Shown one piece after another: positions 10,208-28,820 of a stretch of 29,273 nt of DNA. Under the pieces are notes generated by a model. It did no database searches, was not told where the DNA came from, and saw only the letters and a program-made list of their open reading frames with translations. The DNA is from Candidatus Aerophobota bacterium (lineage in GTDB: Bacteria > Aerophobota > Aerophobia > Aerophobales > B3-G15): contig JAUWZM010000031.1 of NCBI GenBank assembly GCA_030615365.1, positions 1-29,273 on the forward strand, given 5' to 3'. Numbering within the stretch: the stretch's first letter is position 1; each line of letters starts with the position of its first letter. The translations under genes and the position numbers were made by a program.

Positions 10208-11338
10208 TTGACACCCAAAGAAAGAGTTATAAAAGCACTTGAACATAGAGAAGGGGATAGGGTTCCTATTGGAGAGATGTATATGAGCTCTGCTCCCATA
10301 GAAAAAATTCTGGGCAGGGAGACTTTCTTGGGGTGCGTAGAAGATATCTGGCGTGTTTCTAAGGCAAGGTGGGATGGCAGAGAAGAGGAAATATTAAAAA
10401 GCCAAAAGAAAGATCTGGTAGCTTTGGTGAATCAACTTGAATGGGATTTTGTTTCTATAGAGTCATGTTGCATTGCAACAGATTTTATGCCCCGGATGAA
10501 GGTTATCGAAGAAAAGGACGATAAAATCAAATGTCAGGATCCCATGGGAAATATCTGGCTTATTCAGCCCCTTACCGGACACCAGGTCATAATTAAATAT
10601 GCCCAAAAAAGTGATATGCCGTGGAGATTGGGTGGATTAAATGCAGCAGAGTTAGAGTTTACTAAACATATAATAGATAAGTTGGGAAATACTCACTTTA
10701 TAGTCGTTCATGCTGATGGCACTTTTCCCCAACTAGGAGGAATGGAGAATTTTCTTATGAAAATGATTACCGAGCCATCATTTGTTAAAAAGGCTATACA
10801 GGTAAGTACTGAGATGGCTATTGAACGAGGAAAGAAACTTATTCAATTAGGAGCCGATGCAGTGTTGATGGGAACTGATTGGTGCTACAAGGGTGGTCCT
10901 ATTATGGGACCAAAACTTTTTCAAGAATATCTTTTTCCCTCTTTAAAACAACATTGCAAAGAATTCCATAAAGCAGGAGCCTATGTAATAAAACATACCG
11001 ATGGTAACACCTGGCCCATTTTAGACATGGAAATAGAAGCAGGAGTAGATGGTATTCATGGCATAGAGCCAACAGCAGGGATGGATATAAAGAAGCTAAA
11101 ACAAAAGTATGGCCAGCAGTTATGCTTTTTTGGAAATATAGAGTGTGGCGAAACTTTAACCAATGCTCCAATCGAACAGGTAATCAGTGAGGTACGGTAT
11201 GTATTGAAGTGGGGTGCTCCCGGAGGTGGACTGGTTGTCACTTCCAGTAACTCTCTCCACAGAGGGGTGAAATACGATAACTATATGGCAATGCTAAGAA
11301 CAGTAAAGACAGAGGGTATTTATCCCCTTAAAATCTAA
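10208..11338 (+). CDS. Uroporphyrinogen decarboxylase-fold protein (UroD/MtaA-like family)
   Basis: This is a cytoplasmic TIM-barrel protein of the UroD superfamily, about 376 residues. The family start TPKERVIKALEHREGDRVPI is obvious; later motifs are HADGTFPQLGGMENF, GADAVLMGTDWCYK, IKHTDGNTWPILDMEIEAGV, IHGIEPTAGMD and FFGNIE. In corrinoid methyltransferases such as MtaA the zinc site uses H-x-C; here the corresponding segment is H-T-D-G, so classical zinc-thiol methyl transfer is doubtful. The frame extends upstream to an ATG at 10145, but those extra 21 codons lie largely in the MITE-like element. I therefore prefer the TTG at 10208, which matches the family N-terminus. Neither start has a good ribosome site. 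Such divergent UroD-fold genes are often found beside sugar ABC transporters and sulfatases in uncultured bacteria; the reaction is unknown. Confidence 0.85.
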   Translation: MTPKERVIKALEHREGDRVPIGEMYMSSAPIEKILGRETFLGCVEDIWRVSKARWDGREEEILKSQKKDLVALVNQLEWDFVSIESCCIATDFMPRMKVIEEKDDKIKCQDPMGNIWLIQPLTGHQVIIKYAQKSDMPWRLGGLNAAELEFTKHIIDKLGNTHFIVVHADGTFPQLGGMENFLMKMITEPSFVKKAIQVSTEMAIERGKKLIQLGADAVLMGTDWCYKGGPIMGPKLFQEYLFPSLKQHCKEFHKAGAYVIKHTDGNTWPILDMEIEAGVDGIHGIEPTAGMDIKKLKQKYGQQLCFFGNIECGETLTNAPIEQVISEVRYVLKWGAPGGGLVVTSSNSLHRGVKYDNYMAMLRTVKTEGIYPLKI

Positions 11339-11650
11339 TCTCTGTGGTTAAGTTTTGACCTTACTCAAAGTTTACAAAAAAAGGGGGTGAGAAATGAAAT
11401 AAAATTATGGTATATAGGATGAGGTAAAAGAAAGCTTCTAAAGAAAAGTGGTAAAAATGGTTAAATATTTTTTAGAGGCTTTCAGGGAAAGATAAACAAT
11501 CTTGTCAAAAGAAGGGTAATACCAAAAGTCTTATGAAAGAAAATATGAAGCCACGGAGTGTCCAGAGGAGAGACAGTCAGAAGCTTCACAGTTTATTGAT
11601 ATTTAATGATTTTTCTGTGTTCTCTGTGGTTAGGTTTTGACTTTACTCTA
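11339..11650. repeat. Spacer with 30-bp direct repeats and a partial family A inverted repeat
   Basis: A unit beginning TCTCTGTGGTTAAGTTTTGA occurs at 11339-11368 (directly after the UroD-fold stop codon) and again, about 90% identical, at 11621-11650. Between them a GCCACGGAG start near 11553 pairs roughly with TTCTCTGTGGTT near 11620, as in the family A inverted-repeat elements. No ORF with a ribosome site is seen in this spacer of about 330 bp. Confidence 0.55.
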
Positions 11651-11672
11651 AAAAAGATATAAGGAGATTTAA

Positions 11673-12995
11673 ATGAAAAAGAAACTTGTTTATTTTTTGA
11701 TTGCCTGCATGATAGGCACTTTAGTGCTTACGGCGGGTGTCAGTCAAGTTTTGGGAGCAAAACGAACAGAGGTAGAATTTGTTACCTGGGGACCATCTCC
11801 TTTGGTGGACGAATATTTTGAAGGAAGAGTTGTAGCTTTTGAAAAGCTGCATCCCGAAATAAAGGCAAACTACCACTCATTTGGTGATTATCAAAATAAG
11901 CTGATTATCCTCTATGCGGCTGGAGAAACACCGGATGTAATAAGCACCCATACATTGATTCACGATGCGTTTATGTATAGAAATATGTTCTTAGCCTTAG
12001 ACTCATATATTGATGGGCCAAATGGTTTACCCCGGGATGATTTTCCTACTTCTGGTTGGAATGCACTAAGTATGAAAGGTGTAACCTATGGTATTCCTCA
12101 AACCACAGGTGGACTAGGCTTAATGTACAACAGGGATCTTTTTGACAAAGCAGGAATGGCTTATCCAAATGAGAGCTGGACCTGGGATGATTTAAAGGAA
12201 GCGGCTGAAAAATTAACCATTAAAAAAGGAAACCGCGTTGTTCAGTATGGCTTTACTCAGGATTGGATAAGCTGGTGTCTAATCGATGCTATTTACAAGG
12301 CAGGAGGGACCATATGGAATAAAGATAAAACTGCTGCTGCTCTGAACAGCGAAGAGGTGAAAAACGTCCTTTCCTTCTGGAAAGAGCTGATAGATAATGA
12401 CTTTGCAGCAGGCCCGAAGATAGTGGGAACAGCAGCAACAGAGGCAATGAAGCTTTTTGCTATGGGAAGAGCAGCTATGATGATTGGTGGAACCTGGCAG
12501 GTGATGTCAGCCAAAGCGATGTCTCCTGACTTGAACTATGCGGTAACCTTAGCTCCTCAAGGTAAAACCAAGATCAACGTTGTCTTTGACACCAATTACG
12601 CTATAAGCAACCAAACCAAAGTCGGTGATGAAGCCTGGACACTAGCAAAGTTTTTGTTATCTCCTGATGGTCTTTTAGAAACCTGGCGAAGTCTGTACAA
12701 TTCCCTTCCTGCCCGCTACTCTTGCTTTAAAATGGAAGGTTTTAAGGAACCAAAAGGCATCCCCGGTTATATTCCCCCGGTTACGGAAAAAGAATTTGAA
12801 GAGATATTGAGCTGGGAAATCAAGGCATTTCAAAAGGATACAACCTCTACCGAATATTCCTCTGCTTTCGCCATAAACTTCATGGTTTACTCTAGCAAAA
12901 TGCTACAAGAGATATTCATAAAAGGAACACCTGTAGAACAGGCTCTTGATAGCTGTGTAGCTGAAATCAACAAGGCAATTGAAAGAGGACTTTAA
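11673..12995 (+). CDS. Sugar ABC transporter substrate-binding protein (family 1)
   Basis: 440 residues. An N-terminal signal peptide (MKKK, hydrophobic to about residue 27, QVLGA) is followed by a typical family 1 extracellular solute-binding protein. It shows EFVTWGPSPLVDEYF, VVAFEKLHPEIKANYH, LYAAGETPDVIS, YGIPQTTGGLGLMYNRDLF, ESWTWDDLKEAAEKL and MGRAAMMIGGTWQV. These are the hallmarks of MalE/UgpB-type oligosaccharide or sugar-ester binders. LIAC at 9-12 resembles a lipobox, but the hydrophobic core continues past it, so type I cleavage near residue 29 is favoured. AAGGAG lies 8 nt before the ATG. The gene heads the importer set with two permeases; no ATPase gene is in the window, so an MsmX-like shared ATPase elsewhere is likely. 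The ligand is unknown, presumably the substrate of the downstream sulfatases and glycosidase-like proteins. Confidence 0.95.
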   Translation: MKKKLVYFLIACMIGTLVLTAGVSQVLGAKRTEVEFVTWGPSPLVDEYFEGRVVAFEKLHPEIKANYHSFGDYQNKLIILYAAGETPDVISTHTLIHDAFMYRNMFLALDSYIDGPNGLPRDDFPTSGWNALSMKGVTYGIPQTTGGLGLMYNRDLFDKAGMAYPNESWTWDDLKEAAEKLTIKKGNRVVQYGFTQDWISWCLIDAIYKAGGTIWNKDKTAAALNSEEVKNVLSFWKELIDNDFAAGPKIVGTAATEAMKLFAMGRAAMMIGGTWQVMSAKAMSPDLNYAVTLAPQGKTKINVVFDTNYAISNQTKVGDEAWTLAKFLLSPDGLLETWRSLYNSLPARYSCFKMEGFKEPKGIPGYIPPVTEKEFEEILSWEIKAFQKDTTSTEYSSAFAINFMVYSSKMLQEIFIKGTPVEQALDSCVAEINKAIERGL

Positions 12996-13005
12996 TAGAT
13001 GAGTC

Positions 13006-13046
13006 AATCTTCCCTCTCCTGGTGTTATATCAGGAGAGGGAAGATT
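13006..13046 (+). promoter_or_regulatory. Strong stem-loop between binding-protein and permease genes
   Basis: AATCTTCCCTCTCCTG (13006-13021) and its perfect inverse (13031-13046) form a 16-bp stem with a 9-nt loop, 10 nt after the binding-protein stop. No T-run follows. Hairpins at this spot commonly protect the 3' end of the binding-protein mRNA and lower permease expression. It argues against the early permease start at 12999, which would run through the stem. Confidence 0.75.
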
Positions 13047-13067
13047 CTTGAAAGGAGCGCAGTAAAA

Positions 13068-13967
13068 GTGAAACAAGCTAATAGTTCAAACCTGTTTAAG
13101 CAATTTAAGGATAAGAAAGTGCAGGCAGCATATTTATTTATCGCTGTGCCCACTATTTTAATTATGGTCTTCGTATTCCTGCCCAATATAATGGGGGTAA
13201 TTCTGGCGTTTTTTAAATACGATGTTGCTTCTGCTCCCCGCTTTCTGGGTCTGGGCAACTTTATTGAGTTGGCCAGGGATGCCTTAGTCTGGCACTCATT
13301 CAGAGTAACTCTCTATTATATAATGGGAACTCTGCCTGTTGCTATAGTTTTGGGACTTTTTATCGCTCTGGCTTTAAATGCAAAATGGTTCATTGGAAAG
13401 AAAATAGTGCGAACAATGTACTTTTTCCCGGTTATACTGGGAATGGTGGTAGTAGGTTTTTTATGGCAATGGCTGTTGAATCCAATGTTTGGTTTCGTAA
13501 ATTACATCTTAGGGGAAATGGGCTTTGCTTCCATTAATTTTTTTAATAATGTTAAATTAGCCCTGCCTACAGTTGCTCTTATTGGAGTATGGAAAAATCT
13601 GGGATTTTTCATTGTAGTTTACTTAGCTGGATTGCAGGGGATTGAGGAAACTTTCTATGAAGCTGCCAGAATTGATGGTGCCAGTAAATGGCAGCAGATA
13701 CGTTATATCACCTGGCCTCTTCTTGCCCCTACCACTTTTTTCCTTACCGTAATGGGTGTTATTGGAGGTTTTCAAATTTTCCAATTAGTGTATGCCATAA
13801 CACAAGGAGGACCAGCTGATGCTACCAGAGTTATCATATACGATATTTATCAAAATGCTTTTCAATTCTTCAGGTTTGGGTATGGTTCAGCAGAAGCAAT
13901 GATTCTTTTCTTATTTATTATGACTATTACCTTATTCCAGTGGCGTTTTTATCAGAAAAGAATTTAA
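13068..13967 (+). CDS. Sugar ABC transporter permease, MalF/UgpA type
   Basis: About 299 residues, an integral inner-membrane subunit with six predicted helices, the first starting near VQAAYLFIAVPTILIMVFV. The EAA loop that contacts the ATPase is clear: YEAARIDGASKWQQIRYITW followed by PLLAP. GGPADATRVIIYDIYQNAF near the C-terminus is typical of MalF-like carbohydrate permeases. I chose GTG at 13068 because AAAGGAG (13051-13057) precedes it and the protein then has the usual N-terminus. The same frame extends to an ATG at 12999, but that would cross the 16-bp hairpin and add a non-homologous segment. It pairs with the MalG-type permease that begins 27 bp downstream. Confidence 0.93.
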   Translation: MKQANSSNLFKQFKDKKVQAAYLFIAVPTILIMVFVFLPNIMGVILAFFKYDVASAPRFLGLGNFIELARDALVWHSFRVTLYYIMGTLPVAIVLGLFIALALNAKWFIGKKIVRTMYFFPVILGMVVVGFLWQWLLNPMFGFVNYILGEMGFASINFFNNVKLALPTVALIGVWKNLGFFIVVYLAGLQGIEETFYEAARIDGASKWQQIRYITWPLLAPTTFFLTVMGVIGGFQIFQLVYAITQGGPADATRVIIYDIYQNAFQFFRFGYGSAEAMILFLFIMTITLFQWRFYQKRI

Positions 13968-15080: not shown

Positions 15081-15106
15081 ATTACAAAATAACATTGGAG
15101 AAAAGA

Positions 15107-16888
15107 ATGATAAATAGTAAAGAAAAAGGATTCATTGCCTTAGATGGCACTGCTCCCTTTTCCATTAGAAGGGCTTGCGAGCTTCTCTCAGAATGGACAA
15201 AGCTACCTATTGAGGAGGAAGGAGAAGCTGATAATGTGATCCGGATTGCCTATTCCTACCAGGAAAAGACAGACAGGGAACTATTGGATTTAGATGAGGA
15301 AGGATACCTCATTAAAACATATAAAAAGAATAGTTCATCTAATATAGCCATTATAGCCAATACTGTACCAGGAGCTACCAATGGTATCTATGGATTGTGG
15401 AGGATGCTAAAAACTAACCAGTCCCATAATCCCTTTACCCAGGAATGGAATATTAAAGAAAAACCCTATTTTAAAACAAGAGGGATAATGACTATGCTTA
15501 TGCCCTGGGGGTTTGAAGAACTCTCAACTGATTCCTGGACTTTTGAGGAATGGAAGAGTTATTTAGAAAGAATAAGATCCTTGGGGGCAAACTCGGTGAT
15601 GATTTTCCTTTTAGCACTTTATCATCCTGATTTTCCAGAATTAGAAAAAAATGCCTGGCGTTACCGGGTAATCCGAGAGGCAATAATTTATGGAAAGCGC
15701 CTGGGGCTTAAGATATATGTAATGTGGGTTTATAGTATGCTCCCATCTCCCCTTTGGTGGAAATATCCCTCCTTGAGGGCAAAAGTAAGGACGGGATACC
15801 ATGGAATTACCTTTTGCTGGCAGCATCGGGAAGAACATAATATTTTAAAGATTCATCGCTATATTGTAGATTATTTTAAGGAAGCTGATGGATTTTGTCT
15901 TTTTGCTTTTGAACTGGGAGATTGTATATGTGAGAGATGTAGCCATAACCTGGATCAGGTTGTCGTAGAGGCGATGGATAATTTGAAGAAATGGGTAAAA
16001 GAGGTAAAAGCAGGGAAAAACCTTATGTTTTCCACCTGGTTTGCTGGATTGTTTGAAGACCTCACTCCAAATTTACGGGAAAAATTATCTACTCGTCTGC
16101 CTGAAGATATAACAATTGTTGATTTTAATCGCCTCTCGCTATACAAAGCTCAAAAGGAAGGACATAAAGTAATTGATTGGGTATTTTTAACCGATCCCGA
16201 AGGAGGAAGGGAAAACCGGTCTATTTTCCCAAGACCTCGCTTAAATGTGACCAGGAAAAGAATTCTGGGTTTTAAAGAGGATGGGAAATTAAAAAAGGCA
16301 GAAGGATTGTTTATCTATCGACTCACCCCTCCTACCAGATTTTTAAGTGATTATGCAGCCTTAAGATTAGCCTGGAATCCACAGTTAACAGTGGAGGAGA
16401 TCGTTGATGAGGTATCAGGGTTCTTAACCTCAGATAAGGAAAATAAGAAGAGTGTATCAAGGGCTATTCTTTCCTTAGAGAAATGGTGGCAAGGCTTAGA
16501 CGAGGAAGCACTTCAGGAGTCGATTGACCTTTTCGCCAAAGTGAAAGAAAAGGAGAAATCAGATACCTTAGAAAATATCTGGGGACCAGTATCACTCCTA
16601 CCCTTTATTTATGAGCTCAGCAAAGAAGGGGTAAGTGAGGAAAGAGAAGAGGAACTATTTAAAAAGATTTATCAGCGAATGAGAAAGATAAGGATCCTGC
16701 GCTGTTATACTACCGATCAAGCTTGGATAACAAGAGCTCAGGCTATTCTTAAAGCCAGACTTGAGTGGTGGACCTCTAAAGAAGAGGGTTTATTTGGGAA
16801 AGCTTTATTTGGAGGGCAAGATGTTTTAGGCATAGAAAAAGGTGAATTTCCTTTTTTTGAAAACTGGCAAAACTTAATTGAAGAGTAA
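15107..16888 (+). CDS. Glycosidase-like TIM-barrel protein with CxCxxC cluster (copy A)
   Basis: 593 residues, no signal peptide, cytoplasmic. The N-terminal 115 residues look like the small alpha/beta domain in front of GH20/GH67/GH84-type barrels: ACELLSEWTKLPIEEEGE, a strand pattern ending DEEGYLI, then IIANTVPGATNGIYGLWRML. A TIM-barrel-like part begins at FKTRGIMTML (about 122). LFAFELGDCICERC (265-278) has a candidate acid E269 and a Cys-x-Cys-x-x-Cys cluster, as in DUF4838-like barrels. The last third is helical and Trp-rich. I read it as a probable glycoside hydrolase of an uncharacterised family; this is inference. I chose ATG 15107 because GGAG sits 6 nt upstream (a TTG at 15095 is the alternative). 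A close paralog is at 27036. Confidence 0.82.
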   Translation: MINSKEKGFIALDGTAPFSIRRACELLSEWTKLPIEEEGEADNVIRIAYSYQEKTDRELLDLDEEGYLIKTYKKNSSSNIAIIANTVPGATNGIYGLWRMLKTNQSHNPFTQEWNIKEKPYFKTRGIMTMLMPWGFEELSTDSWTFEEWKSYLERIRSLGANSVMIFLLALYHPDFPELEKNAWRYRVIREAIIYGKRLGLKIYVMWVYSMLPSPLWWKYPSLRAKVRTGYHGITFCWQHREEHNILKIHRYIVDYFKEADGFCLFAFELGDCICERCSHNLDQVVVEAMDNLKKWVKEVKAGKNLMFSTWFAGLFEDLTPNLREKLSTRLPEDITIVDFNRLSLYKAQKEGHKVIDWVFLTDPEGGRENRSIFPRPRLNVTRKRILGFKEDGKLKKAEGLFIYRLTPPTRFLSDYAALRLAWNPQLTVEEIVDEVSGFLTSDKENKKSVSRAILSLEKWWQGLDEEALQESIDLFAKVKEKEKSDTLENIWGPVSLLPFIYELSKEGVSEEREEELFKKIYQRMRKIRILRCYTTDQAWITRAQAILKARLEWWTSKEEGLFGKALFGGQDVLGIEKGEFPFFENWQNLIEE

Positions 16889-16935: not shown

Positions 16936-18102
16936 ATGGTAACCGTATATCCAATAGGGACGACCATCTATAATCCTGAGAAGTGTTACAATGGTTATAC
17001 GATAATGTGCTTTCCCGCTGGTCATAAAGCAGTTAAGCTGATTGATATGAACGGCAATGTTGTCAATGAATGGAATGTCTTAGCCATACGGGCCAGACTT
17101 TTGGAAAATGGCAATCTGCTCACGGTAACAAGAAGAAAAATGAAAAAAAATCTTATTCAGGAATATGATTGGGATCATCGCCTTGTTTGGGAATATGCTC
17201 CTCCAGGAAGCCCTCATCATGACGTTCAAAGATTGGAAAATGGCAACACTTTATTGCTCTATACCAAAGTGGTCCCCGAGGAATACAGAGAAAAAATTGA
17301 AAATCCTGAGCGCAGAAGAGATATCTGTGTCCATTCAGACGTTGTGCTTGAAATAACACCAAAAAAAGAGATAGCCTGGGAATGGTATACCTACAAGCAT
17401 TTAGACATAAACTTATATCATCAGATATGTAGTTTGGCCGACTGGACACACATAAACACTGTTCAGGCACTTCCAGAAAACAAGTGGTATAACGCAGGAG
17501 ATGCGAGGTTCAAACCGGGTAATATTTTGTTAAGCCCGAGAAATCTCAGCCGCATCTTTATAGTGGATAAGGATACCAAAGAGATAGTCTGGACCTACAC
17601 TGGCGATTACGATGGTGGGCTTGCCGGACAGCACGAACCACATATGATCGAGAAGGGCCTGCCCGGTGAGGGCAACATATTGATCTTTGATAATGGTGCA
17701 CCTCCTCTTAATAATCTTATACACTCCAGCCAATCATACGTAATTGAGATAAATCCACCTACCAAGGTAGTAGTGTGGAAGTATGAGAATGGGGAACAGT
17801 TCTTTAGTAGATTCAGGGCTAATGCACAAAGGATTCCCCATGGAAATACATTGATATGTGAATCCAATGGTTTCAGGATCTTTGAGGTCACTTCAGAAGG
17901 AGAAACAGTTTGGGAACATGTCGTTCCAGACCAGTTAACAATTGGCCGTGCCTATAGATATTCCTACAATCACTGTCCTCAACTGAAGACTTTAGGTAAA
18001 CCAAAGGAGAAACCAGTAACTCCACCATCACATGTGAGGACAATGCCGACAAGCTTCAAGGCTTTGATGGAGGATCTTCTATGGGATTTTCAGATTAAGT
18101 GA
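16936..18102 (+). CDS. Arylsulfotransferase (ASST)-like beta-propeller protein, cytoplasmic
   Basis: 388 residues. It has a six-bladed-propeller repeat pattern (blades such as VKLIDMNGNVVNEWN, IQEYDWDHRLVWEYAPPG, SRIFIVDKDTKEIVWTYTG, SYVIEINPPTKVVVWKYENG). The ASST-family active-site segments are recognisable in order: HHDV (H94/H95), DWTHINTV (H172), SPRN (R202) and GQHEPH (H233/H236), matching the His-His-Arg-His set of AssT in which a His carries the sulfate. Known AssT enzymes move sulfate from an aryl sulfate to a phenol and are periplasmic; here no signal peptide is visible, so a cytoplasmic role is likely. AGGAGGA lies 8-9 nt before the ATG. It sits between the glycosidase-like gene and a permease, upstream of the sulfatase-fold genes. 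Sulfotransferase activity is inferred; a non-enzymatic propeller is possible. Confidence 0.85.
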   Translation: MVTVYPIGTTIYNPEKCYNGYTIMCFPAGHKAVKLIDMNGNVVNEWNVLAIRARLLENGNLLTVTRRKMKKNLIQEYDWDHRLVWEYAPPGSPHHDVQRLENGNTLLLYTKVVPEEYREKIENPERRRDICVHSDVVLEITPKKEIAWEWYTYKHLDINLYHQICSLADWTHINTVQALPENKWYNAGDARFKPGNILLSPRNLSRIFIVDKDTKEIVWTYTGDYDGGLAGQHEPHMIEKGLPGEGNILIFDNGAPPLNNLIHSSQSYVIEINPPTKVVVWKYENGEQFFSRFRANAQRIPHGNTLICESNGFRIFEVTSEGETVWEHVVPDQLTIGRAYRYSYNHCPQLKTLGKPKEKPVTPPSHVRTMPTSFKALMEDLLWDFQIK

Positions 18103-18129: not shown

Positions 18130-18990
18130 ATGCTTAAAAAAGAAGAGGGGATTGAACATACAAATCTTTTATTTCAGATAATTATTCTTGTTATCATCTG
18201 GCTTGTTGGCGTTGGTATGATTTTTCCTGTTGTCTGGGCATTAACTACTTCTCTGAAGGAAAGAGCCCAGGTCTGGCAATATCCACCTTCCTGGATACCC
18301 TGGCCAGCTACCTTAGGCAATTATCCTAAGGTCTGGGATTTAGTTAATTTTGGCAGAGCTTTTATAAATAGTGGCATTGTCACATCTGTAGTTACCCTGG
18401 GTGGATTATTCTTCAGCGCCTTAGCTGGCTTTGCCTTTGCTCATTATCGCTTTCCCGGGCGAAATATCATCTTTTTTGCTATTCTATCCACTATAATGGT
18501 ACCGGTGCAAATAAGATTAATCCCTACCTTTCTTATTATAAAGTGGATTGGCTGGATAGATACCTATCAAGCCTTAATTCTTCCCCTGTTAGGTAATGCT
18601 TTTGGAATATTCTTAATGCGACAGTTCCTGCAGGCTATTCCCAGAGACCTATTTGATTCTGCTCGAATTGATGGGTCCTCAGAATTTAGGATTTTTCTAC
18701 AGATAGTTATGCCTCTTTGCAAACCTGCCTTAGCTGCTCTGGGAATTTTCATCTTTATGGGGGCCTGGAATGATTTTATGTGGCCATTAATTGTAGTAAA
18801 AAGTCAAGAGATGAAAACAGTCCCCTTGATAATAGCCAGTTTAGCTTCCGGAGGAGAAGGAACGGCAATAACTGGCTGGCCTGTCTTAATGGCTGGGGCT
18901 ATGCTGGTGGTTATACCAGTATTGATAGTGTTCATAGCATTTCAAAATTATTTCGTAAGAGGAATTACCCTTTCTGGTTTAAAGGGATAA
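18130..18990 (+). CDS. Sugar ABC transporter permease, MalG type (copy 2)
   Basis: 286 residues, about 90% identical to the 13995 permease, with the same KERAQVWQYPPSWIPWP and FDSARIDGSSEFRIFLQIVM (EAA) segments. Changes concentrate in the loop before the last helix: copy 1 has GLGSAATAIHGWP, copy 2 has SLASGGEGTAITGWP with a 2-residue insertion. It starts with ATG at 18130, AGGGG about 6 nt upstream. No MalF partner accompanies it, so it may pair with the 13068 permease as an alternative subunit or be a recent duplicate. The match to copy 1 continues about 23 bp past the stop codon and then stops. Confidence 0.94.
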   Translation: MLKKEEGIEHTNLLFQIIILVIIWLVGVGMIFPVVWALTTSLKERAQVWQYPPSWIPWPATLGNYPKVWDLVNFGRAFINSGIVTSVVTLGGLFFSALAGFAFAHYRFPGRNIIFFAILSTIMVPVQIRLIPTFLIIKWIGWIDTYQALILPLLGNAFGIFLMRQFLQAIPRDLFDSARIDGSSEFRIFLQIVMPLCKPALAALGIFIFMGAWNDFMWPLIVVKSQEMKTVPLIIASLASGGEGTAITGWPVLMAGAMLVVIPVLIVFIAFQNYFVRGITLSGLKG

Positions 18991-19201: not shown

Positions 19202-19217
19202 AAAGGAGGTTTTTTGA

Positions 19218-20857: not shown

Positions 20858-21652
20858 ATGGCCAGTATACCTGATTTTTCTCTAAAAGGTAAGGTGGCTA
20901 TTGTGACGGGAGGCAGGAGAGGGATAGGCAAGGCTATTGCGTTAACTTTTGCTGAGGCCGGAGCTGATGTTGCTATTGGTGATTGCGTGATTGAGGATGG
21001 TGAACTGGACGATGTAGCCAGGGAAATCCAAAGACTTGGCAGGCGTTCCCTGGCAATTCAGATTGACGTTTCGCAAAAAACGGATGTGGATAACCTTGTT
21101 CGAGAAGTAATGGATGAGTTTGGCGTTATTGACATTTTAATAAATAATGCTGGTGTTGTTATCCCTGTACAGGTGCTTGAAACCTCAGAGGTGCTTGAAG
21201 TTTCAGAAGATATCTGGGACAGGATGATTGGTGTTAATCTTAAAGGTTGCTATCTATGCTCCCAGGCAGTAGGCAAAATAATGGTCAAGCAAAACAAGGG
21301 TAATATTATTAGTATGGCATCGGTGGCGGGGCTCAAGATGGCGGTTGATACAGCAAACGTTGTGTATAATATTAGTAAGGCAGGGATAATGATGTTTACC
21401 CGAGTGCTGGCGAAAGAATTAAGCAAATACAATATACGGGCCAATGCCATCGCTCCCGGCGGGGTTAAAACAGAGATGATTCGACCTCTATGGAGCGACC
21501 CTGAGATCTTTAAGCAGATCAAGGTAAAAATACCGGTAGGTCGATTAGCTCAGCCAAGGGAGATAGCCAACGTGGCTTTGTTTTTAGCTTCTGATGCCTC
21601 CAGTTATATCACGGGGCATACTATTGTTGCAGATGGCGGTTTGTTGACTTAG
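20858..21652 (+). CDS. Short-chain dehydrogenase/reductase (SDR, classical)
   Basis: 264 residues, a cytoplasmic oxidoreductase. The glycine-rich NAD(P) motif TGGRRGIG is at 17-24, Asp42 at the end of strand 2 (VAIGDC) suggests NAD rather than NADP, NNAG is at 96-99, catalytic Ser about 155 (ISMASVAG) and the YNISK Tyr/Lys pair are Y170 and K174. The C-terminal GGLLT ending is typical of FabG-like/sugar-alcohol SDRs. A stretch around 104-118 (QVLETSEVLEVSED) is a few residues longer than usual. AAAAGGAGG lies before the ATG. It lies 51 bp before the acetoacetate-decarboxylase-fold gene, so the pair is probably co-transcribed. In this cluster it probably oxidises a hydroxyl of the released sugar or acyl unit. 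Confidence 0.93.
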   Translation: MASIPDFSLKGKVAIVTGGRRGIGKAIALTFAEAGADVAIGDCVIEDGELDDVAREIQRLGRRSLAIQIDVSQKTDVDNLVREVMDEFGVIDILINNAGVVIPVQVLETSEVLEVSEDIWDRMIGVNLKGCYLCSQAVGKIMVKQNKGNIISMASVAGLKMAVDTANVVYNISKAGIMMFTRVLAKELSKYNIRANAIAPGGVKTEMIRPLWSDPEIFKQIKVKIPVGRLAQPREIANVALFLASDASSYITGHTIVADGGLLT

Positions 21653-21703: not shown

Positions 21704-23473
21704 ATGAACAAGTCCATTTTTTTTAATCTTCGCTATCGGACTGATCCGAAACGTATCCAAAGAGTACTCCCTCCTCTACTTGAGCCAGATGATGAGGCTA
21801 TAGTTCTGGTCGATTACGCTTTGGTTGACTTCGATGAACCATTACGTAGCATCTTTATGCCAGAGGCCTATTATGAATCAGGTTTTCATGTTTCTGCAAA
21901 GTACCGTGGTCACAGGGGTATGTTCCAAATAGGTATGCCCTTGAACTGTGACTGGGGACGGGCAATGGGCCGTGAAGCTGTTGGTTATTGTAAGAAGGAC
22001 GGCAAGATAAATATTGAGGTTAAAGATGATATTATTCATGCCTCTTTATGGCGTCGTGGGTTTCTAATCCATCGCGTAGAGACTGTTGTCACCAACAAAC
22101 CTGCCCATCCATTGAACTGGTTTCGTGAATTCGGGTACGGTGCTTTCCTCTATCGTTTTCGGCTTAACCCTGATTGGCGGAGAGGACCCCTGGGTGATGG
22201 TCCTGTGGAGCTGTGGCGTCTGGGTGGGAACGAATATGGTTATCCTACTGAGATGGAAGAGGGTGAGTACCTGCCGCTTGCCTGTGATATTGCGCGTACT
22301 AAATTTGAATTCGTTGACCCCTCCCCTCTCGATCCCTTCTGTGAATTTCCATTACTGGAAATACTTGGTGTTACATACCATGCTGTGTTCTGGGCTGATA
22401 GTTTTCAGTCCCCACAGCGACCACCTCGCCCTGGCAGTGCACCGACAACGATAGCCGGACCAACCTCTGTCTTCTTAGAAACAGTAGATAAAGCTGCGTT
22501 TGAACCATGGGCCCTCATTGGACATGATCGCCCTGTAAGTGATGGAAAACCATGGTGTCCTGCTATCTGGCCAGATTCAGCAACAGCTCTCAAACTCACA
22601 CCTGAAGAGCTCGAAGCACATCACTCACGAGAGAGTATCAGTCTTGCTCCAATCGACCTCGTTGATATCGAGCTAAAGATAGACCCCAAGACCCACGCAA
22701 AAACTCTACCACCGGGTTGCAATCCGAGTAATAAACCCCTGGTGCGCATTCTGGCCATCCGGGCCAAGGCCAGCAATATCTCCCCGGTACCTTTCAGTGA
22801 GCTGTGGCTCCTCAGTCGCTGTGAAATCAACGGCAAGTTAGCTTACTACGCACTCTCACACATCGTCGGCTCAGGAGGTGATGTTACCTTTGGACGTGAG
22901 ACCTTTGGCTATCCTTCAAAGATTGGTGAAGTTGAGTTAACGCTTCACGAGAAAGACTTTACTGTTCTGGGAAGGCGTCTCGGTCGTGATTTCTTTCGCT
23001 GCCATGCAAACCTATCACAACCTGTGGTAGGTTCAGGTGAAGAGAAATTTGTCCTGTTGGGGATTCAAGTGCAACCCATGAAACTGGAGACTCAAGTGAA
23101 TCCCATCAAAGATCCTCAAGCACCACATGCTAATCTGATAGGTCAGCCATGGACCATCCATCGTGAACACTCAAGTGATGCTACCACAGAGTCAGCCACG
23201 ATTGAGTTCCCAGACTCTCCTGGTCCTGGAATCATCGGTCGGCCTGATCCCTGGTTTGAGCTGCATCCGTATCGGGTAACCAGGGCAACACTCAGTCAAG
23301 GCGTTATGAGTCGTGGACCAGGTCAAATCCTGAAGGACCTACCAAACTTTATGCCCTACTTTGCAGAACGCTACGACGGTATCTGCGGGGATAATGTGCA
23401 ACAGGTAATACAGATGATGCAACAAGGTTCGAAGGCAACGTTCCTGGTAAACAGGAGCACCCTCTCTGAATAG
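21704..23473 (+). CDS. Double-domain acetoacetate decarboxylase-fold protein
   Basis: 589 residues, about twice the length of acetoacetate decarboxylase (ADC). Two ADC-like halves are visible. The first (about 1-290) has LPPLLEPDDEAIVLVDYAL, SAKYRGHRGMFQIGMPL and GREAVGYCKKDGKINI (K97-K98). The second (about 315-589) has FSELWLLSRCEINGKLAYY and GRETFGYPSKIGEVEL (S406-K407). In ADC the Schiff-base Lys is the first of a Lys-Lys pair after YP; the first half keeps both Lys, with Cys96 in place of Pro, while the second half has Ser at the first position. The first half is thus the better candidate for catalysis. ADC-fold relatives also act as hydratase/aldolase-type enzymes. GGGAGGTG precedes the ATG. 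It follows the SDR gene by 51 bp, consistent with oxidation then decarboxylation or carbonyl chemistry. Confidence 0.85.
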   Translation: MNKSIFFNLRYRTDPKRIQRVLPPLLEPDDEAIVLVDYALVDFDEPLRSIFMPEAYYESGFHVSAKYRGHRGMFQIGMPLNCDWGRAMGREAVGYCKKDGKINIEVKDDIIHASLWRRGFLIHRVETVVTNKPAHPLNWFREFGYGAFLYRFRLNPDWRRGPLGDGPVELWRLGGNEYGYPTEMEEGEYLPLACDIARTKFEFVDPSPLDPFCEFPLLEILGVTYHAVFWADSFQSPQRPPRPGSAPTTIAGPTSVFLETVDKAAFEPWALIGHDRPVSDGKPWCPAIWPDSATALKLTPEELEAHHSRESISLAPIDLVDIELKIDPKTHAKTLPPGCNPSNKPLVRILAIRAKASNISPVPFSELWLLSRCEINGKLAYYALSHIVGSGGDVTFGRETFGYPSKIGEVELTLHEKDFTVLGRRLGRDFFRCHANLSQPVVGSGEEKFVLLGIQVQPMKLETQVNPIKDPQAPHANLIGQPWTIHREHSSDATTESATIEFPDSPGPGIIGRPDPWFELHPYRVTRATLSQGVMSRGPGQILKDLPNFMPYFAERYDGICGDNVQQVIQMMQQGSKATFLVNRSTLSE

Positions 23474-23564: not shown

Positions 23565-24977
23565 ATGAACGTAATTATTATCTTTGTGGATAGTCTCAGG
23601 CAAGATCATGTAAGTGTCTACAATGCGAACAAGTCACCTTTTGAGGATATCTCACCCTGCAAGACACCGAATATTGATGAGTTCGCAAAAGAGTGTGTAA
23701 TCTTTGATAATGCCTATCCCAGCGGACTTCCAACTATGCCTGTTCGTCTTGAAGTAATGACCGGTCAAAACACATTGCCCTGTCGGGGCTGGGAACCATT
23801 GAAACCAAATGATGTCACCATCCAACAGATCCTTAATAATTTGGGCTATGTCTCTGGTCTTATCGCTGATACCTATCATTTTCGTGCTCCCGGCATGAAC
23901 TACCATGCTGGCTTTAATTGCTATCAATGGATCCGTGGTCAGGAATACGATCCCTGGATCAGTTCCCCTCCCAAACGAGATATCAATGATTATGTGAATG
24001 AGCACTACCCGAAAATCTGGCGTAATCGCATTAAACAATTTCTGGCCAATACTGATGATTTTCATTCAGAATCAGATTGGTATCCAGCTAAAGTTGTAGA
24101 AAAGGCCTGCCAATGGTTAAAAGCCAATCGCTGTTATAAAAAAACTCTTCTGTGGATTGATAGCTTTGATCCTCACGAGCCCTGGGATCCACCTAAAAAA
24201 TGGGATACCTATACAGATCCAGACTACAAGGGTAAACGACTTATTATGCCCATGGGTGGATTAGCTTCAAAATGGGCTACCCCTGAGGAGACAAAATATA
24301 TCCGTGGTCTCTATGCAGGGGAGGTTAGCTTCGTGGACCATTGTCTGGGTAGGCTTTTTAGTTGTCTTGAAGAACAAGGATATATGGATAATTCATTCAT
24401 TTTCCTCCTGGCTGATCATGGGCACCCTTTAGCTGATCACGGTAAATTTTTAAAAGGGTCTGACCGTATGTATAGTGAACTTTTAAAAGTACCTTTTTTA
24501 GTGCACCTTCCTGGTGGAGAAAATAAAGGTATGAGAACAGATGCTCTGGTTCATTTTTATGATATTTTGCCCACTATCTTGGAATCACTGGGTTTAAAAA
24601 GTGTTACCGAGAATATGCATGGCAAAAGTTTTTTTCCCGTTCTCAAAAATAAAATCAACGAACATCGCTCAGCCATTATTGCTGGTTACCATGAAGGCTT
24701 TGAACGGTGCATTCGGGATAAAAATTGGAGTTATGTTATTAGACCAAAGGGTGAGTTGGATGAGCTTTATAATATAGAGAATGACTGGCGAGAGACAAAA
24801 AATGTGATTGAGAAATACCAGCAAGAAGCTCTACGTCTTGCTGAAATGTTCAACAACTATTTCTACCAACCTCTCAAAGAAGTTGGTAGAGGTTTGCAAG
24901 GGGAATATGAGATGGCATCAGGAGAAATAGATGGACTGCTGGCAGCCATTGGAGCCTCTACTAAAATAATTGACTGA
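23565..24977 (+). CDS. Sulfatase-fold hydrolase with Thr nucleophile position (second type)
   Basis: 470 residues, no signal peptide. The fold motifs are VIIIFVDSLRQDHVSVYN (D9, D14), TPNIDEFAKECVIFDNAY, IFLLADHGHPLADHGKFL (D284, H285, H292) and KVPFLVHLPGG. The active-site segment SGLPTMPVRLEVMTGQNT has Thr57 where the formylglycine precursor Cys/Ser normally sits (T-x-P-x-R). It is followed by the CRGWEPL segment, also seen as HLGWAPL in the 19218 protein, which suggests a shared subfamily. C-terminal ELYNIENDWRETKNV is standard for sulfatases. GGGGAG lies before ATG 23565. It is divergent from the 19218 enzyme and may act on a different position of the same imported compound. Confidence 0.9.
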   Translation: MNVIIIFVDSLRQDHVSVYNANKSPFEDISPCKTPNIDEFAKECVIFDNAYPSGLPTMPVRLEVMTGQNTLPCRGWEPLKPNDVTIQQILNNLGYVSGLIADTYHFRAPGMNYHAGFNCYQWIRGQEYDPWISSPPKRDINDYVNEHYPKIWRNRIKQFLANTDDFHSESDWYPAKVVEKACQWLKANRCYKKTLLWIDSFDPHEPWDPPKKWDTYTDPDYKGKRLIMPMGGLASKWATPEETKYIRGLYAGEVSFVDHCLGRLFSCLEEQGYMDNSFIFLLADHGHPLADHGKFLKGSDRMYSELLKVPFLVHLPGGENKGMRTDALVHFYDILPTILESLGLKSVTENMHGKSFFPVLKNKINEHRSAIIAGYHEGFERCIRDKNWSYVIRPKGELDELYNIENDWRETKNVIEKYQQEALRLAEMFNNYFYQPLKEVGRGLQGEYEMASGEIDGLLAAIGASTKIID

Positions 24978-25206: not shown

Positions 25207-25239
25207 TTGTGACCAAAAATATACAGGGAGATTAGAAAT

Positions 25240-26589
25240 ATGAAACCTAACATTTTGTTTATCATCTGTCATGACTTAGGACAAAATTTAGGATGCTATG
25301 GAGATTCTTCTGTAAAGACACCCAATCTGGATCTTTTAGCTGAAGAGGGAGTGCGTTTTGAGAATTATTTTGCTACAGCCCCTCAGTGCAGTCCCAGCAG
25401 GGCCAGTATTAGCACAGGCAAATATCCTCATAGTCATGGAGTGATGGGATTAGTGAACTCATGGCCCCCTCTTATGGATTGGGATCTTCCTTCACCAGAG
25501 AAAACTATAGCTCAAAGGCTTAAAGAGGCAGGCTATTCTACTTATCTATTTGGACTTCAACACGAGAGAAAAAAACCTTCTACTCTGGGATTTGACGAGG
25601 TAATAGAACCCAAGGGAAACAATTTCGAAAAATATCACTGTGATAAAGTAGCTCCTCTGGTTATCGATTTTTTGAAAAACTCACCAGGGGAACCATTTTT
25701 TGCTAATGTAGGATTTTTCGAGGTCCATCGCCCCTATCCCAGGAAACTCTATCAACCAGATGATCCAAAAGAGGTTCTTGTTCCTGCTTATCTTCCTGAC
25801 ATTCCACAGATACGGCAGGATATAGCCGATTTTCATGGTGCTATTCACAAAGCAGATGAGGCAGTGGGCTCTATATTAAGTGCCCTGAAAAAGGCAAATC
25901 TTGAAAAAAATACATTAGTTATATTTACCACAGATCATGGAAGTGAATTTCCCAGAGCTAAGTGCACTCTCTATGATCCTGGGATAGAGACTGTTTTAAT
26001 AATGCGTTGGTTAGCCGGTGGTATAACTGGAGGTAAGGAATACTCGGAACTTTTGAGTAATATAGACTTTTTGCCTACTATTTTAGATATAGTGGGGGCT
26101 CCAATTTCCGAGAGTATACAGGGAAAAAGCTTCCTATCGCTTTTACAAGATAAGAGTTTTAAAAAGCGAGATGAAATATTTGCCGAAAAAACATATCATA
26201 CCATATATGATCCTATGAGATGCATACGCACAGAACGATATAAATATATACGTAATTTTTCAGAGGGACCCATACGTACCCTTGCTACTTGCGATCCAGG
26301 CGCCTCAAGTGGCAAGGTATTAAGTTACCTCTTAGAGCCTTATGAGGCTATTGATTTTGTTGATTTGGCAAATATTCCAGATAGCCAAAAGTATTTCTAC
26401 TTACTAAAATCACGTCCCATGGAAGAGCTATATGATGTAAAAAATGACCCTCATGAACAGCATAATCTTGCCCGTAAGCCAGAGTATATAAATATCCAAA
26501 AGGAATTAAATAGCCGTCTTACAAAATGGATGGAAGAGACAAAAGACCCAATATTAAAAGGCCCTGTGCCTACGCAAGATAAGCAGTAA
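25240..26589 (+). CDS. Canonical Cys-type sulfatase, sulfamidase (N-sulfoglucosamine sulfohydrolase)-like
   Basis: 449 residues, cytoplasmic. It has the full sulfatase signature APQCSPSRASISTGKYPHSH (Cys50-Ser-Pro-Ser-Arg54, Lys61, His64/66), with Cys50 the formylglycine precursor. It also shows FIICHDLGQNLGCYGD (D12), LFGLQHERK (H108), GFFEVHRPYPRK (H163) and FTTDHGSEFPRAKCTLYD (D232, H233, K241). The VHRPY and DHG..F.RAK.TLYD patterns are those of the sulfamidase/heparan N-sulfatase branch, so an N-sulfated or O-sulfated sugar is a reasonable guess. No formylglycine-generating enzyme or radical-SAM maturase gene is in the window; it must be elsewhere. GGGAG lies about 9 nt before ATG. It is the only clear formylglycine enzyme of the three sulfatase-fold genes here. 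Confidence 0.92.
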   Translation: MKPNILFIICHDLGQNLGCYGDSSVKTPNLDLLAEEGVRFENYFATAPQCSPSRASISTGKYPHSHGVMGLVNSWPPLMDWDLPSPEKTIAQRLKEAGYSTYLFGLQHERKKPSTLGFDEVIEPKGNNFEKYHCDKVAPLVIDFLKNSPGEPFFANVGFFEVHRPYPRKLYQPDDPKEVLVPAYLPDIPQIRQDIADFHGAIHKADEAVGSILSALKKANLEKNTLVIFTTDHGSEFPRAKCTLYDPGIETVLIMRWLAGGITGGKEYSELLSNIDFLPTILDIVGAPISESIQGKSFLSLLQDKSFKKRDEIFAEKTYHTIYDPMRCIRTERYKYIRNFSEGPIRTLATCDPGASSGKVLSYLLEPYEAIDFVDLANIPDSQKYFYLLKSRPMEELYDVKNDPHEQHNLARKPEYINIQKELNSRLTKWMEETKDPILKGPVPTQDKQ

Positions 26590-26694
26590 GGCTCTTTCGG
26601 AGTCTCAATATCAAGATTTTCCTAAGATTCTTTCTTTTACAAAAGAAAAGCTAAAATAAGACCATAATAGATAAGTTTTTCTAAAAAATGGAGT

Positions 26695-26772
26695 CATTGC
26701 TCATTTGTCATTGCGAACCTGACAAAACATGCGGTGGCACAGACATCTTGTCTGTGGAAATCAAAGCAATCC
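26695..26772. repeat. Family B inverted-repeat element (second copy, opposite orientation)
   Basis: Bounded by ATTGCT and AGCAAT, with the internal palindrome CACAGACA-TCT-TGTCTGTG. It is the reverse complement of the 6734-6810 copy over most of its length. Confidence 0.75.
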
Positions 26773-26782
26773 CTTGTAGCTT

Positions 26783-26887
26783 GCCGATTTATCGGCTGTT
26801 TTGATGCCCTTGTAGCTTGCCGATTTATCGGCGCATTAAGCCCCGCCCAATAAATTGGGCAGCTACAAACCGCTCCGTGAATGGAGT
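26783..26887. repeat. Family C mini-hairpin array (one extra head, one full unit, one tail)
   Basis: Four hairpins in a row: GCCGATTTATCGGC (26783-26796), the same again (26819-26832), GCCCAATAAATTGGGC (26845-26860) and CTCCGTGAATGGAG (26873-26886, with one G-T pair). The GTAGCT...AGCTAC frame of the full unit runs 26812-26866. With the family B copy it fills most of the 446-bp spacer before the 27036 gene; no gene is seen there. Confidence 0.75.
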
Positions 26888-26925
26888 AGCTACAATTACC
26901 AGAGAAAAGGGAAAAGTTTTAGAAA

Positions 26926-26979
26926 AGCTAAACTATTACATAAGACCAAAGGGAGGCGCGAAAGTAGGTAGGTTTAGCT
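26926..26979 (+). promoter_or_regulatory. Candidate structured leader upstream of the 27036 gene
   Basis: AGCTAAAC (26926-26933) and GTTTAGCT (26972-26979) form an 8-bp closing stem around AAGACCAAAGGGAGGCGCGA and following bases. A related structure with a shared GACCAAAGGGRGG core lies at 28881-28931. Placement about 55 nt before a start codon suggests a cis-acting RNA or another mobile repeat. Confidence 0.35.
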
Positions 26980-27035
26980 GAGGAAAAGAAAATTGAATCA
27001 TACTAAAAATAGTATTAAAATAAGGAGAAAACGAA

Positions 27036-28820
27036 ATGAATAGTAAAAAGAAAGAAGCAGGATTAATTAAATTAGATGATAGCGCTCCCTTTTCTGTGAG
27101 AAGAGCCTGTGAGCTTCTCTCAGAATGGACAAAGCTACCTATTGAGGAGGAAGGAGAAGCTGATAATGTTATCCAGATTGCCTATTCGGGTAAGGAAAAG
27201 ATACACAAGGAATTGATGGATTTAGATGAGGAAGGATACCTTATTAAAACAGAGAAAATGAACAGTTCATCCAGGGTAGTCATTATAGCTAACACTGTAC
27301 AAGGGGCTACCAATGGCATCTACGGATTGTGGAGAAGGCTAAAGATTAACCAATCTCATAATCCCTTTACCCAGGAATGGAATATTAAAGAAAAACCCTA
27401 TTTTAAAACAAGGGGGATATGGATTTTACTTATGCCCTGGGGATTTGAAGAGCTCTCGCCTAATGTCTGGACTTCTGAGGAATGGAAGAGCTATTTAGAA
27501 AAAATAAGATCTTTGGGGGCAAACTCAGTGATGATTTTTCTTATAGCATTTTACCATCCTGATTTTCCAGAATTAGAAAAATATGCCTGGCATTATAGGG
27601 TACTCCGGGAGGCAGTAATTCATGGAAAACGCCTGGGACTTAAGATGAACATAGCCTGGAACTATGGGATGCTACCACCTTCTCTCTGGTGGAAATATCC
27701 TTCATTAAGAGCAGAAGCCAGATTATATCATGGAATTACCTTTTGCTGGCAGCACAGGGAAAATCATAATATTTTAAAGATTCATCGCTATATTGTAGAT
27801 TATTTTAAAGAAGCTGATGGATTTTGTCTCTTTGCTTTTGAAGGGGGAGCCTGTTTATGTGAAAAATGTTCTCATAATCTGGATCAGATTGCCGTAGAGG
27901 CAGTGGAGAATTTGAAGAAATGGGTAAAAGAAGTGGGGGCAGGGAAAGATCTTATGTTTTCCAGCTGGTTTGCTGCAGCCTGGGAAGACCTTACTCCCAA
28001 TTTACGGGAAAAACTATGCGCTCGCCTGCCTGAAGATATAACAATCGTTGATTTTAATCGCCTTACATTATACAAGGCTCAGGAAAGAGGACACCGAGTC
28101 ATCGATTGGGTATTTTTAACTGATCCAGAAGGAGGAAGGGAAAATCAAGCTATTTTCCCCAAACCTCGTTTAAATGTTACCGCAAAAAGAATTCTGGGTT
28201 TTAAAGAGGATGAGAAATTAAAAAACCCGGAAGGATTATTTATCTATCGGCTAACCCCTCCTACCAGATTTTTAAGTGATTATGCATCATTAAGATTAGC
28301 CTGGAATCCACAGCTAACGGTAGAGGAGATTGTTGATGAGGTATCGGGATTCTTAACCTCGAATAAGGAAAATAAGAAGATCTTATCTAAAGCCATCTTA
28401 TCCTTAGAGAAATGGTGGCAAGAATTAGACGAGGAAGCTCTTCAAGAATCTATTGATCTTTTCGCTAAAGTGAAAGAAAAGGAGAAATCAGATACCTTAG
28501 AAAATATCTGGGGACCGGTATCGCTTCTACCCTTTATTTATGAGCTAAGCAAAGAGGGGGTAAGTGAGGAAAGAAAAGAGGAACTATTTAAAGAGATTTA
28601 TCAGCGGATGAGAACCATAAGGATACTGCGCTGTTATACTACTGACCAATGCTGGATAACAAGAGCTCAGGCTACTCTTAAAGCCAGACTTGAGTGGTGG
28701 ACTTCTAAAAAAGAAGGTTTATTCGGGGGAATTGATATCTTTGGTGTAGGAAGGGGTGAATTTCCTTTTTTTGAGGGTTGGCATAATTTAATTAAAGAGT
28801 TAAAAAAAAGGTTGGCTTGA
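27036..28820 (+). CDS. Glycosidase-like TIM-barrel protein with CxCxxC cluster (copy B)
   Basis: 594 residues, roughly 85% identical to the 15107 protein over its whole length, including the N-terminal domain (ACELLSEWTKLPIEEEGEAD), the TNGIYGLWR segment, GITFCWQH and LFAFEGGACLCEKCSHNL, which keeps the candidate Glu and the three cysteines. Differences cluster around residues 195-225 (NIAWNYGMLPPSLWW against YVMWVYSMLPSPLWW) and near the C-terminus, where copy B lacks a few residues (GLFGGIDIFGVG). That fits a change in substrate preference after duplication. AAGGAG lies 8 nt before ATG 27036. It is separated from copy A by about 10 kb, with the second MalG-type permease in between. Confidence 0.82.
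   Translation: MNSKKKEAGLIKLDDSAPFSVRRACELLSEWTKLPIEEEGEADNVIQIAYSGKEKIHKELMDLDEEGYLIKTEKMNSSSRVVIIANTVQGATNGIYGLWRRLKINQSHNPFTQEWNIKEKPYFKTRGIWILLMPWGFEELSPNVWTSEEWKSYLEKIRSLGANSVMIFLIAFYHPDFPELEKYAWHYRVLREAVIHGKRLGLKMNIAWNYGMLPPSLWWKYPSLRAEARLYHGITFCWQHRENHNILKIHRYIVDYFKEADGFCLFAFEGGACLCEKCSHNLDQIAVEAVENLKKWVKEVGAGKDLMFSSWFAAAWEDLTPNLREKLCARLPEDITIVDFNRLTLYKAQERGHRVIDWVFLTDPEGGRENQAIFPKPRLNVTAKRILGFKEDEKLKNPEGLFIYRLTPPTRFLSDYASLRLAWNPQLTVEEIVDEVSGFLTSNKENKKILSKAILSLEKWWQELDEEALQESIDLFAKVKEKEKSDTLENIWGPVSLLPFIYELSKEGVSEERKEELFKEIYQRMRTIRILRCYTTDQCWITRAQATLKARLEWWTSKKEGLFGGIDIFGVGRGEFPFFEGWHNLIKELKKRLA

What the first reader, a model, noticed from the sequence alone, without database searches (positions are those of the whole stretch)
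10208..28820. Cytoplasmic catabolic island joining a sugar importer, sulfotransferase-like, sulfatase-fold and decarboxylase-fold enzymes
Thirteen plus-strand genes combine a family 1 sugar ABC importer, two glycosidase-like barrels, an ASST-like propeller, three sulfatase-fold enzymes, an SDR, a double ADC-fold protein and a UroD-fold protein. No enzyme has a visible signal peptide, unlike classic polysaccharide utilisation loci with exported sulfatases. This suggests whole-molecule import of a small sulfated or esterified glycoside and a complete intracellular route. A sulfotransferase-like gene in a desulfation locus hints at sulfate shuttling to an acceptor rather than simple release. The combination is not one I know as a described pathway.
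Basis: partly seen in the sequence, partly recalled or inferred. Interest (0 to 1): 0.75.

Follow-up and report, generated by a model that had tools for sequence, protein, structure and literature searches.

The report
Cytoplasmic sulfo-sugar breakdown gene island
A run of thirteen genes in an uncultured sediment-type bacterium looks like a kit for importing a small charged sugar compound and stripping it inside the cell, using a sulfate-transferring enzyme and, in two of three cases, 'sulfatases' that are probably not sulfatases.

The parts
10208..11338 (+). UroD-fold protein (TTG start; longer ORF from 10145)
   Evidence: PF01208 83.9 bits; aligns to MtaA 4ay7 but H-x-C reads H-x-D; start choice
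11673..12995 (+). Family 1 sugar-binding protein with signal peptide
   Evidence: SBP_bac_1 133.7 bits; hydrophobic N-terminus 2.71
12999..13967 (+). Importer permease, MsmF/MalF type
   Evidence: BPD_transp_1 61.5 bits
13995..14849 (+). Importer permease, MsmG/MalG type, copy 1
   Evidence: BPD_transp_1 62.0 bits; 90% identical to copy 2
15095..16888 (+). Glycosidase-like barrel protein GHX-A (probable start ATG 15107)
   Evidence: weak GH67 N-domain hit, below cut-off; low-confidence model of its 83% identical copy matches GH84/GH67/GH20
16936..18102 (+). Cytoplasmic PAPS-independent sulfotransferase-like six-bladed propeller (ASST-like)
18130..18990 (+). Importer permease, MsmG/MalG type, copy 2
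   Evidence: BPD_transp_1 63.9 bits; 90% identical to copy 1
19218..20573 (+). Sulfatase-fold enzyme ThrS1 with Thr at the nucleophile position; probable phosphoester enzyme
   Evidence: PF00884 152.3 bits; T49 aligns with the FGly Cys; 51% relatives 2.6 and 4.1 kb from ASST genes in G001 and G005
20858..21652 (+). Short-chain dehydrogenase of the sugar/polyol type
   Evidence: adh_short_C2 228.7 bits; NF005559 247 bits over its cut-off of 215
21704..23473 (+). Double acetoacetate-decarboxylase-fold protein
   Evidence: PF06314 125.3 bits, two stretches; 73 further homologs in a capped search, nearest 63%; second domain has S/T at the first position of its K-K site in 71 of 74; GC 0.489 against 0.38-0.45 for the other 17 genes measured
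23565..24977 (+). Sulfatase-fold enzyme ThrS2 with Thr at the nucleophile position
   Evidence: PF00884 121.3 bits; T-M-P-V-R motif; 76% relative in G001, on another contig than its ASST genes
25240..26589 (+). Cys-type (CSPSR) FGly sulfatase candidate, S1_8-like
   Evidence: PF00884 161.0 bits; best solved relative S1_8A sulfatase 9bb9, E 2.4e-60; 46% relative in G015 beside KDPG-aldolase and enolase-superfamily genes
27036..28820 (+). Glycosidase-like barrel protein GHX-B

Best explanation
A catabolic island for a small anionic glycoside, run in the cytoplasm. The binding protein and permeases import the whole molecule (inferred from family; the ATPase must come from elsewhere). The two barrel proteins cut the glycosidic bond (inferred from fold). 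The Cys-type S1_8-like protein removes a sulfate ester from the sugar, if the cell has a maturase (inferred). The ASST-like propeller takes a sulfuryl group onto a histidine and passes it to another hydroxyl compound (fold shown on a model; active-site set conserved; chemistry and substrates inferred). The two Thr-type sulfatase-fold proteins act on phosphate mono- or diesters, or transfer such groups, and are not sulfatases (residue shown, chemistry inferred). The SDR, double ADC and UroD-fold proteins process the freed carbon skeleton (inferred, weak).
Against: GHX, double ADC and the Cys-type sulfatase were not found in the relatives' ASST loci; GHX in its only other genome lies in a corrinoid methyl-transfer locus. 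Thr-type enzymes also occur far from any ASST: 10 of the 12 phylum genomes that have sulfatase-family matches have no ASST, and G062, outside the phylum, has three Thr-type genes beside Dpp-type binding proteins and no ASST. Gaps up to 446 bases. No ASST in G012, the genome with the closest relative of the window's TPR marker protein. In 11 ASST-bearing genomes outside the phylum no ORF in the fetched stretches matched the window's sulfatase-fold proteins at 1e-5; several stretches are short, and one (L028) holds a PF01663 phosphodiesterase-family gene about 8 kb from its ASST. The window's ASST (36-39% identical to those of G001/G005) is of another clade than theirs. The window's own genome is not held, so maturase and ATPase could not be looked for.
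Confidence: 0.5

Rival explanations
1. No single pathway: a growth zone where several small catabolic units (importer + barrel + ASST; Thr-type enzyme; SDR + double ADC; Cys-type sulfatase + barrel) accumulated next to each other, each with its own substrate.
For: Gaps of 227-446 bases between units, against 3-91 bases inside them; SDR and double ADC have the highest GC, 0.449 and 0.489; two gene duplications; ThrS2, CysS and GHX relatives lie at separate places in relatives.
Against: All 13 genes share one strand; ASST and Thr-type enzymes cluster again in G001 and G005 far beyond chance, with importers in G005.
Confidence: 0.3
2. Biosynthesis: the ASST-like enzyme adds sulfate to a glycoside, as Cpz4 does in caprazamycin synthesis, and the sulfatase-fold enzymes edit it.
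For: Closest solved structure is Cpz4, said to sulfate sugar hydroxyls of glycosides; relatives keep ATP sulfurylase next to ASST.
Against: No glycosyltransferase, PKS or exporter family among the hits of the 13 genes; the locus has an importer and glycosidase-like genes; PAPS-independent enzymes do not use ATP-sulfurylase products directly (recalled).
Confidence: 0.1
3. A C1 locus: the barrel and UroD-fold proteins free and demethylate a methylated glycoside, and sulfate chemistry is secondary.
For: In G001 the barrel gene lies with two MttB-like methyltransferases, an MtgC-like corrinoid protein, an AcsV/RACo-like activator and two UroD-fold proteins (the second MttB-like gene by likeness to the first in the translations).
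Against: No corrinoid protein, MttB or activator family among the hits of the window's larger genes; its UroD-fold protein has H-x-D where MtaA has H-x-C and scores far below the cut-offs of the four methyltransferase models it matches.
Confidence: 0.1

Closest known systems
Streptobacillus moniliformis GAG import cluster (PMC5430744, passages)
   Same: ABC importer with binding protein brings in sulfated disaccharides; sulfatase and hydrolase predicted cytoplasmic
   Different: No sulfotransferase-like propeller or Thr-type sulfatase-fold enzyme is mentioned in the passages read; substrate known there, unknown here
Bacterial PAPS-independent aryl sulfotransferases: E. coli ASST (3elq, 3ets) and Cpz4 (9kf4, 9kf6)
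   Different: Window protein has no signal-like start and its model starts directly with the propeller, without the N-terminal beta-sandwich described for E. coli ASST; 17-20% identity
S1_8A galactose-2-sulfate sulfatase of the lambda-carrageenan PUL (PMC12549532, passages)
   Same: Whole-length relative of 25240-26589, E 2.4e-60, Cys at the FGly site
   Different: The carrageenan genes were cloned 'without predicted signal peptides', so those enzymes are apparently exported; the window's has no signal-like start; substrate here untested
Phosphonate monoester hydrolases/phosphodiesterases and other alkaline phosphatase superfamily esterases
   Same: Same fold; solved sequences matching ThrS1 include them; superfamily members with a Thr nucleophile act on phosphate esters (recalled)
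   Different: PMH uses formylglycine; ThrS1 and ThrS2 have Thr; the three alignments shown all have Cys or Ser there, the other rows were not checked
GH20/GH84/GH67 glycosidases
   Same: N-domain plus (beta/alpha) barrel plus helical domain, best structural matches of GHX-B
   Different: Model pLDDT only 53.6; 8-16% identical in the rows listed; no Asp before the conserved Glu (E269), so GH20's Asp-Glu pair (recalled) is not there

Membership tests
Formylglycine sulfatase (S1), for ThrS1 and ThrS2 | [CS]-x-P-x-R maturation motif (PMC5066984) | tested here: not met
   T-V-P-M-R and T-M-P-V-R
Formylglycine sulfatase (S1), for 25240-26589 | [CS]-x-P-x-R maturation motif | tested here: met
   C-S-P-S-R
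Formylglycine sulfatase (S1), for 25240-26589 | A maturase (anSME or FGE) in the same cell | not testable with these tools
   No genome held for the window; in the phylum anSME over its cut-off in 2 of 17 (matches at E 0.001 in 14 of 17), PF03781 in 4 of 17
PAPS-independent aryl sulfotransferase (PF05935/PF14269) | Family profile and propeller fold | tested here: met
PAPS-independent aryl sulfotransferase (PF05935/PF14269) | Nucleophile His with His, H-x-N, Arg, Thr around the sulfuryl group | tested here: inconclusive
   H95, H172-x-N174, R202, H233, T305 conserved in 117-120 of 120 close homologs; matched to H252/H356/N358/R374/H436/T501 by motif and spacing only
PAPS-independent aryl sulfotransferase (PF05935/PF14269) | Sulfuryl transfer from an aryl sulfate | not testable with these tools
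   needs enzyme assay
MtaA/CmuA-type methylcobamide methyltransferase, for the UroD-fold protein | H-x-C motif (zinc ligands, recalled) and family score | tested here: not met
   H-T-D in the alignment to 4ay7; 89.0 of 244 and 73.7 of 235.4 bits
GH20/GH84/GH67 glycosidase, for GHX-A/B | Family profile and catalytic residues | tested here: inconclusive
   Glyco_hydro_67N 19.0 and 24.4 of 24.3 bits; low-confidence model; one conserved Glu without the GH20 Asp
Acetoacetate decarboxylase, for 21704-23473 | ADC fold and Schiff-base Lys (Lys115-Lys116 pair, recalled) | tested here: inconclusive
   PF06314 met; domain 1 has K-K, but only 47 of 74 aligned proteins keep the first Lys; domain 2 has S or T there in 71 of 74
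Family 1 (CUT1-type) sugar ABC importer | Binding protein and two permeases | tested here: met
   no ATPase gene seen in the window
Classic sulfated-polysaccharide utilisation locus | Exported sulfatases | tested here: not met

The most novel reading that the evidence does not exclude
In this phylum sulfate esters are opened inside the cell by transfer onto a histidine of a cytoplasmic ASST-like propeller instead of by hydrolysis with a formylglycine sulfatase; the sulfuryl group is handed to an acceptor and, in relatives, feeds a neighbouring ATP sulfurylase and PAPS-reductase-domain protein. The two genomes with ASST pairs show only Thr-type sulfatase-fold proteins and no anSME over its cut-off, while the two genomes with anSME have Cys-type sulfatases and no ASST. 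Against a clean split: G001 also has a PF03781 (FGE-domain) protein, the genomes may be incomplete, and the window holds both ASST and a Cys-type sulfatase.
Probability: 0.15. Interest if true: 0.7.

Novelty: new variant of a known kind. Interest (0 to 1): 0.42.

Why it matters
Natural acceptors are unknown for most PAPS-independent sulfotransferases (PMC13426309, passages). A cytoplasmic clade next to sugar importers gives a concrete place to look. It also shows that most 'sulfatases' in the held genomes of this phylum (36 of 43 aligned) have a nucleophile that formylglycine cannot come from, which would inflate estimates of sulfated-glycan use.

Tried and rejected
Own genome: none held. GHX scan of the species genomes gave one locus only, and a profile search of the phylum found no second genome. 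GHX structure from five sequences: pLDDT 53.6, used only for the overall architecture. Residue-level match to E. coli ASST: its sequence did not appear in profile searches of solved structures, also at E 10, and a longer ASST relative found nothing useful, so the mapping rests on motif and spacing. Empty-site test in the nearest relative G012: its contig with the marker gene is only 3,268 bases. The methyltransferase gene left of the island had no match at 1e-20 in 17 genomes and the HD-GYP gene many paralogs; neither helped to place the border. A viral-contig scan with the ASST alignment gave one contig-edge fragment. Operon by promoter/terminator pattern: no clear excess. Paper searches for Aerophobetes + sulfatase: 0 papers; for arylsulfotransferase + sulfatase + metagenome + marine sediment: 1, listing only; for Aerophobota: 19, of which one was opened for a single passage; for an arylsulfotransferase catabolic cluster: 20 papers, ten listed, none fitting by title and abstract start. 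Considered and rejected: that the three sulfatase-fold genes are one desulfation cascade (two have Thr); that the UroD-fold protein is an MtaA-type methyltransferase. On checking, a gene in L098 that I had read as a sugar isomerase had no Pfam match and is no longer used.

Rows dropped: of 48 sulfatase-family matches in 12 of 17 genomes, 43 were recovered for the nucleophile alignment (36 Thr, 5 Cys, 2 with a gap there); 5 short fragments were not. In the ASST start-site count 89 of 120 have two or three residues before the TVYPxGTT motif, 12 have more, 19 did not fit the search expression, several of them truncated. The 120 are the best listed of 3,199 homologs, 50% or more identical, so their conservation is expected to be high.
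Full report
What is there. The permease copies are 90% identical and the barrels 83%; dN/dS near 0.2 in both pairs (NG86) suggests that both copies are kept. No ATPase subunit was seen in the window.

Where it comes from. No genome is held for the window. The 931-residue TPR protein at 411-3206 has matches at E <= 1e-60 in 16 of 98 searched genomes; all 16 belong to the 17-genome phylum of G001, nearest G012 at 74%. A 75% relative of the ASST-like protein (partial, 78% of the query covered) is named Candidatus Aerophobetes (P0026).

Export. For nine enzymes the in-frame starts were scanned; the most hydrophobic 12-residue mean in the first 40 residues is 1.51, against 2.71 in the binding protein. 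Most of the 120 listed ASST homologs also start directly at the propeller: 89 have only two or three residues before its first motif, 12 have more, 19 did not fit the expression. Some distant relatives (L021, L029) have signal-like starts by eye.

The sulfatase-fold enzymes. ThrS1 and ThrS2 have Thr at the position of the formylglycine cysteine; the Asp and His residues of the metal site remain (which residues bind metal is recalled). PMC5066984 (passages) states that oxidation of Thr would give a ketone and that Thr-motif proteins cannot be considered functional sulfatases without experiment. Across the 17 genomes PF00884 has 48 matches in 12 genomes; 43 could be aligned: 36 Thr, 5 Cys, 2 fragments without the site. 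The 5 Cys-type proteins are in G011 (4) and G015 (1), which also hold 12 Thr-type ones; these are the only two genomes with anSME over its cut-off; by chance 1 in 136, a test chosen after seeing the data. Weaker matches to the anSME model occur widely (14 of 17 genomes at E 0.001 in all, G001 and G005 included, and 12 of 14 control genomes) and are expected from other radical-SAM enzymes. Against a strict rule: PF03781, the FGE domain family, is present in G001, G002, G003 and G015. [quoted passage not shown] Its 46% relative in G015 sits in one run with a KDPG/KHG-aldolase-family gene (160.6 bits) and an enolase-superfamily gene (226.9 bits), a sugar-acid type of neighbourhood.

The barrels. 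GHX looks rare: three relatives besides the window's own second copy were found among the 7,994 candidates scored from 5.8 billion proteins, and one further genome locus. The architecture resembles GH84, GH67 and GH20, but the model is poor (pLDDT 53.6). E269 is invariant in the five aligned proteins; the residue before it is not Asp. In G001 the gene stands in a corrinoid methyl-transfer locus, so its substrate need not be a sulfated sugar.

The other enzymes. The UroD-fold protein aligns with MtaA but has Asp for Cys in the H-x-C motif. In the 98 genomes searched it has no double-length relative; seven give weak single-domain matches.

Conservation. ASST is in 13 of 98 genomes, 2 of them in the phylum. 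In both, sulfatase-fold genes cluster within 10 kb of ASST far beyond chance (tandem copies, fragments and rounded genome sizes make the tests optimistic), a 51% ThrS1 relative lies 2.6 kb (G001) and 4.1 kb (G005) from an ASST gene, and G005 has sugar-type importers beside both its ASST pairs. Two of these loci (L007 in G001, L026 in G005) also hold ATP sulfurylase and a PAPS-reductase-domain protein, and L026 a DUF6955 protein. But Thr-type enzymes are also common without ASST, in 10 of the 12 phylum genomes with sulfatase-family matches and in G062 outside it. In the 11 other ASST-bearing genomes no ORF of the fetched stretches matched the window's sulfatase-fold proteins at 1e-5; L028 has a PF01663 gene about 8 kb from its ASST, and L036 (G061) has importer genes and a UroD-fold gene near its ASST. 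GHX, CysS and the double ADC are not part of the recurrent set.

Verdict. ABC import followed by cytoplasmic desulfation is already described (PMC5430744, passages). What seems new, within the searches, is the repeated association of a cytoplasmic ASST-like propeller with Thr-type sulfatase-fold enzymes, and with sugar importers in G005 and the window.

Noticed in passing
L007:3517-4608, L025:9855-10973, L026:5693-6802: Second ASST paralog of each pair has Glu and Asn where the other copy has its two conserved His (H172, H233), a likely natural inactive partner.
   Followed up: partly
L007:1-2155, L026:1758-5617: ATP sulfurylase and a PAPS-reductase-domain protein beside the ASST pairs of G001 and G005, with DUF6955 in L026; none of these families was seen in the window.
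   Followed up: partly
L001:5138-16293: The only other genome locus of GHX carries MttB-like, MtgC-like corrinoid, AcsV/RACo-like, DUF2961 and UroD-fold genes: an apparent demethylation locus.
   Followed up: partly
411-3206 (-): 931-residue TPR protein behaves as a phylum marker: 16 of 17 phylum genomes, 0 of 81 others at 1e-60.
   Followed up: yes
21704-23473: Double ADC gene has the highest GC of the 18 genes measured (0.489); its best relatives (63%) are unnamed, and named ones are from Blastocatellia, Thermoanaerobaculia and Alphaproteobacteria, possibly a transferred gene.
   Followed up: no
29037-29273: Short ORF after GHX-B that starts with a signal-peptide-like sequence and stops early (read by eye; position).
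   Followed up: no
3496-4029: 177-residue ORF without a Pfam match.
   Followed up: no
L047, L048, L088-L090, L093, L095-L098: G011 and G015 carry anSME and Cys-type sulfatases beside 12 Thr-type ones, some next to Dpp-type importers; useful comparison genomes.
   Followed up: partly
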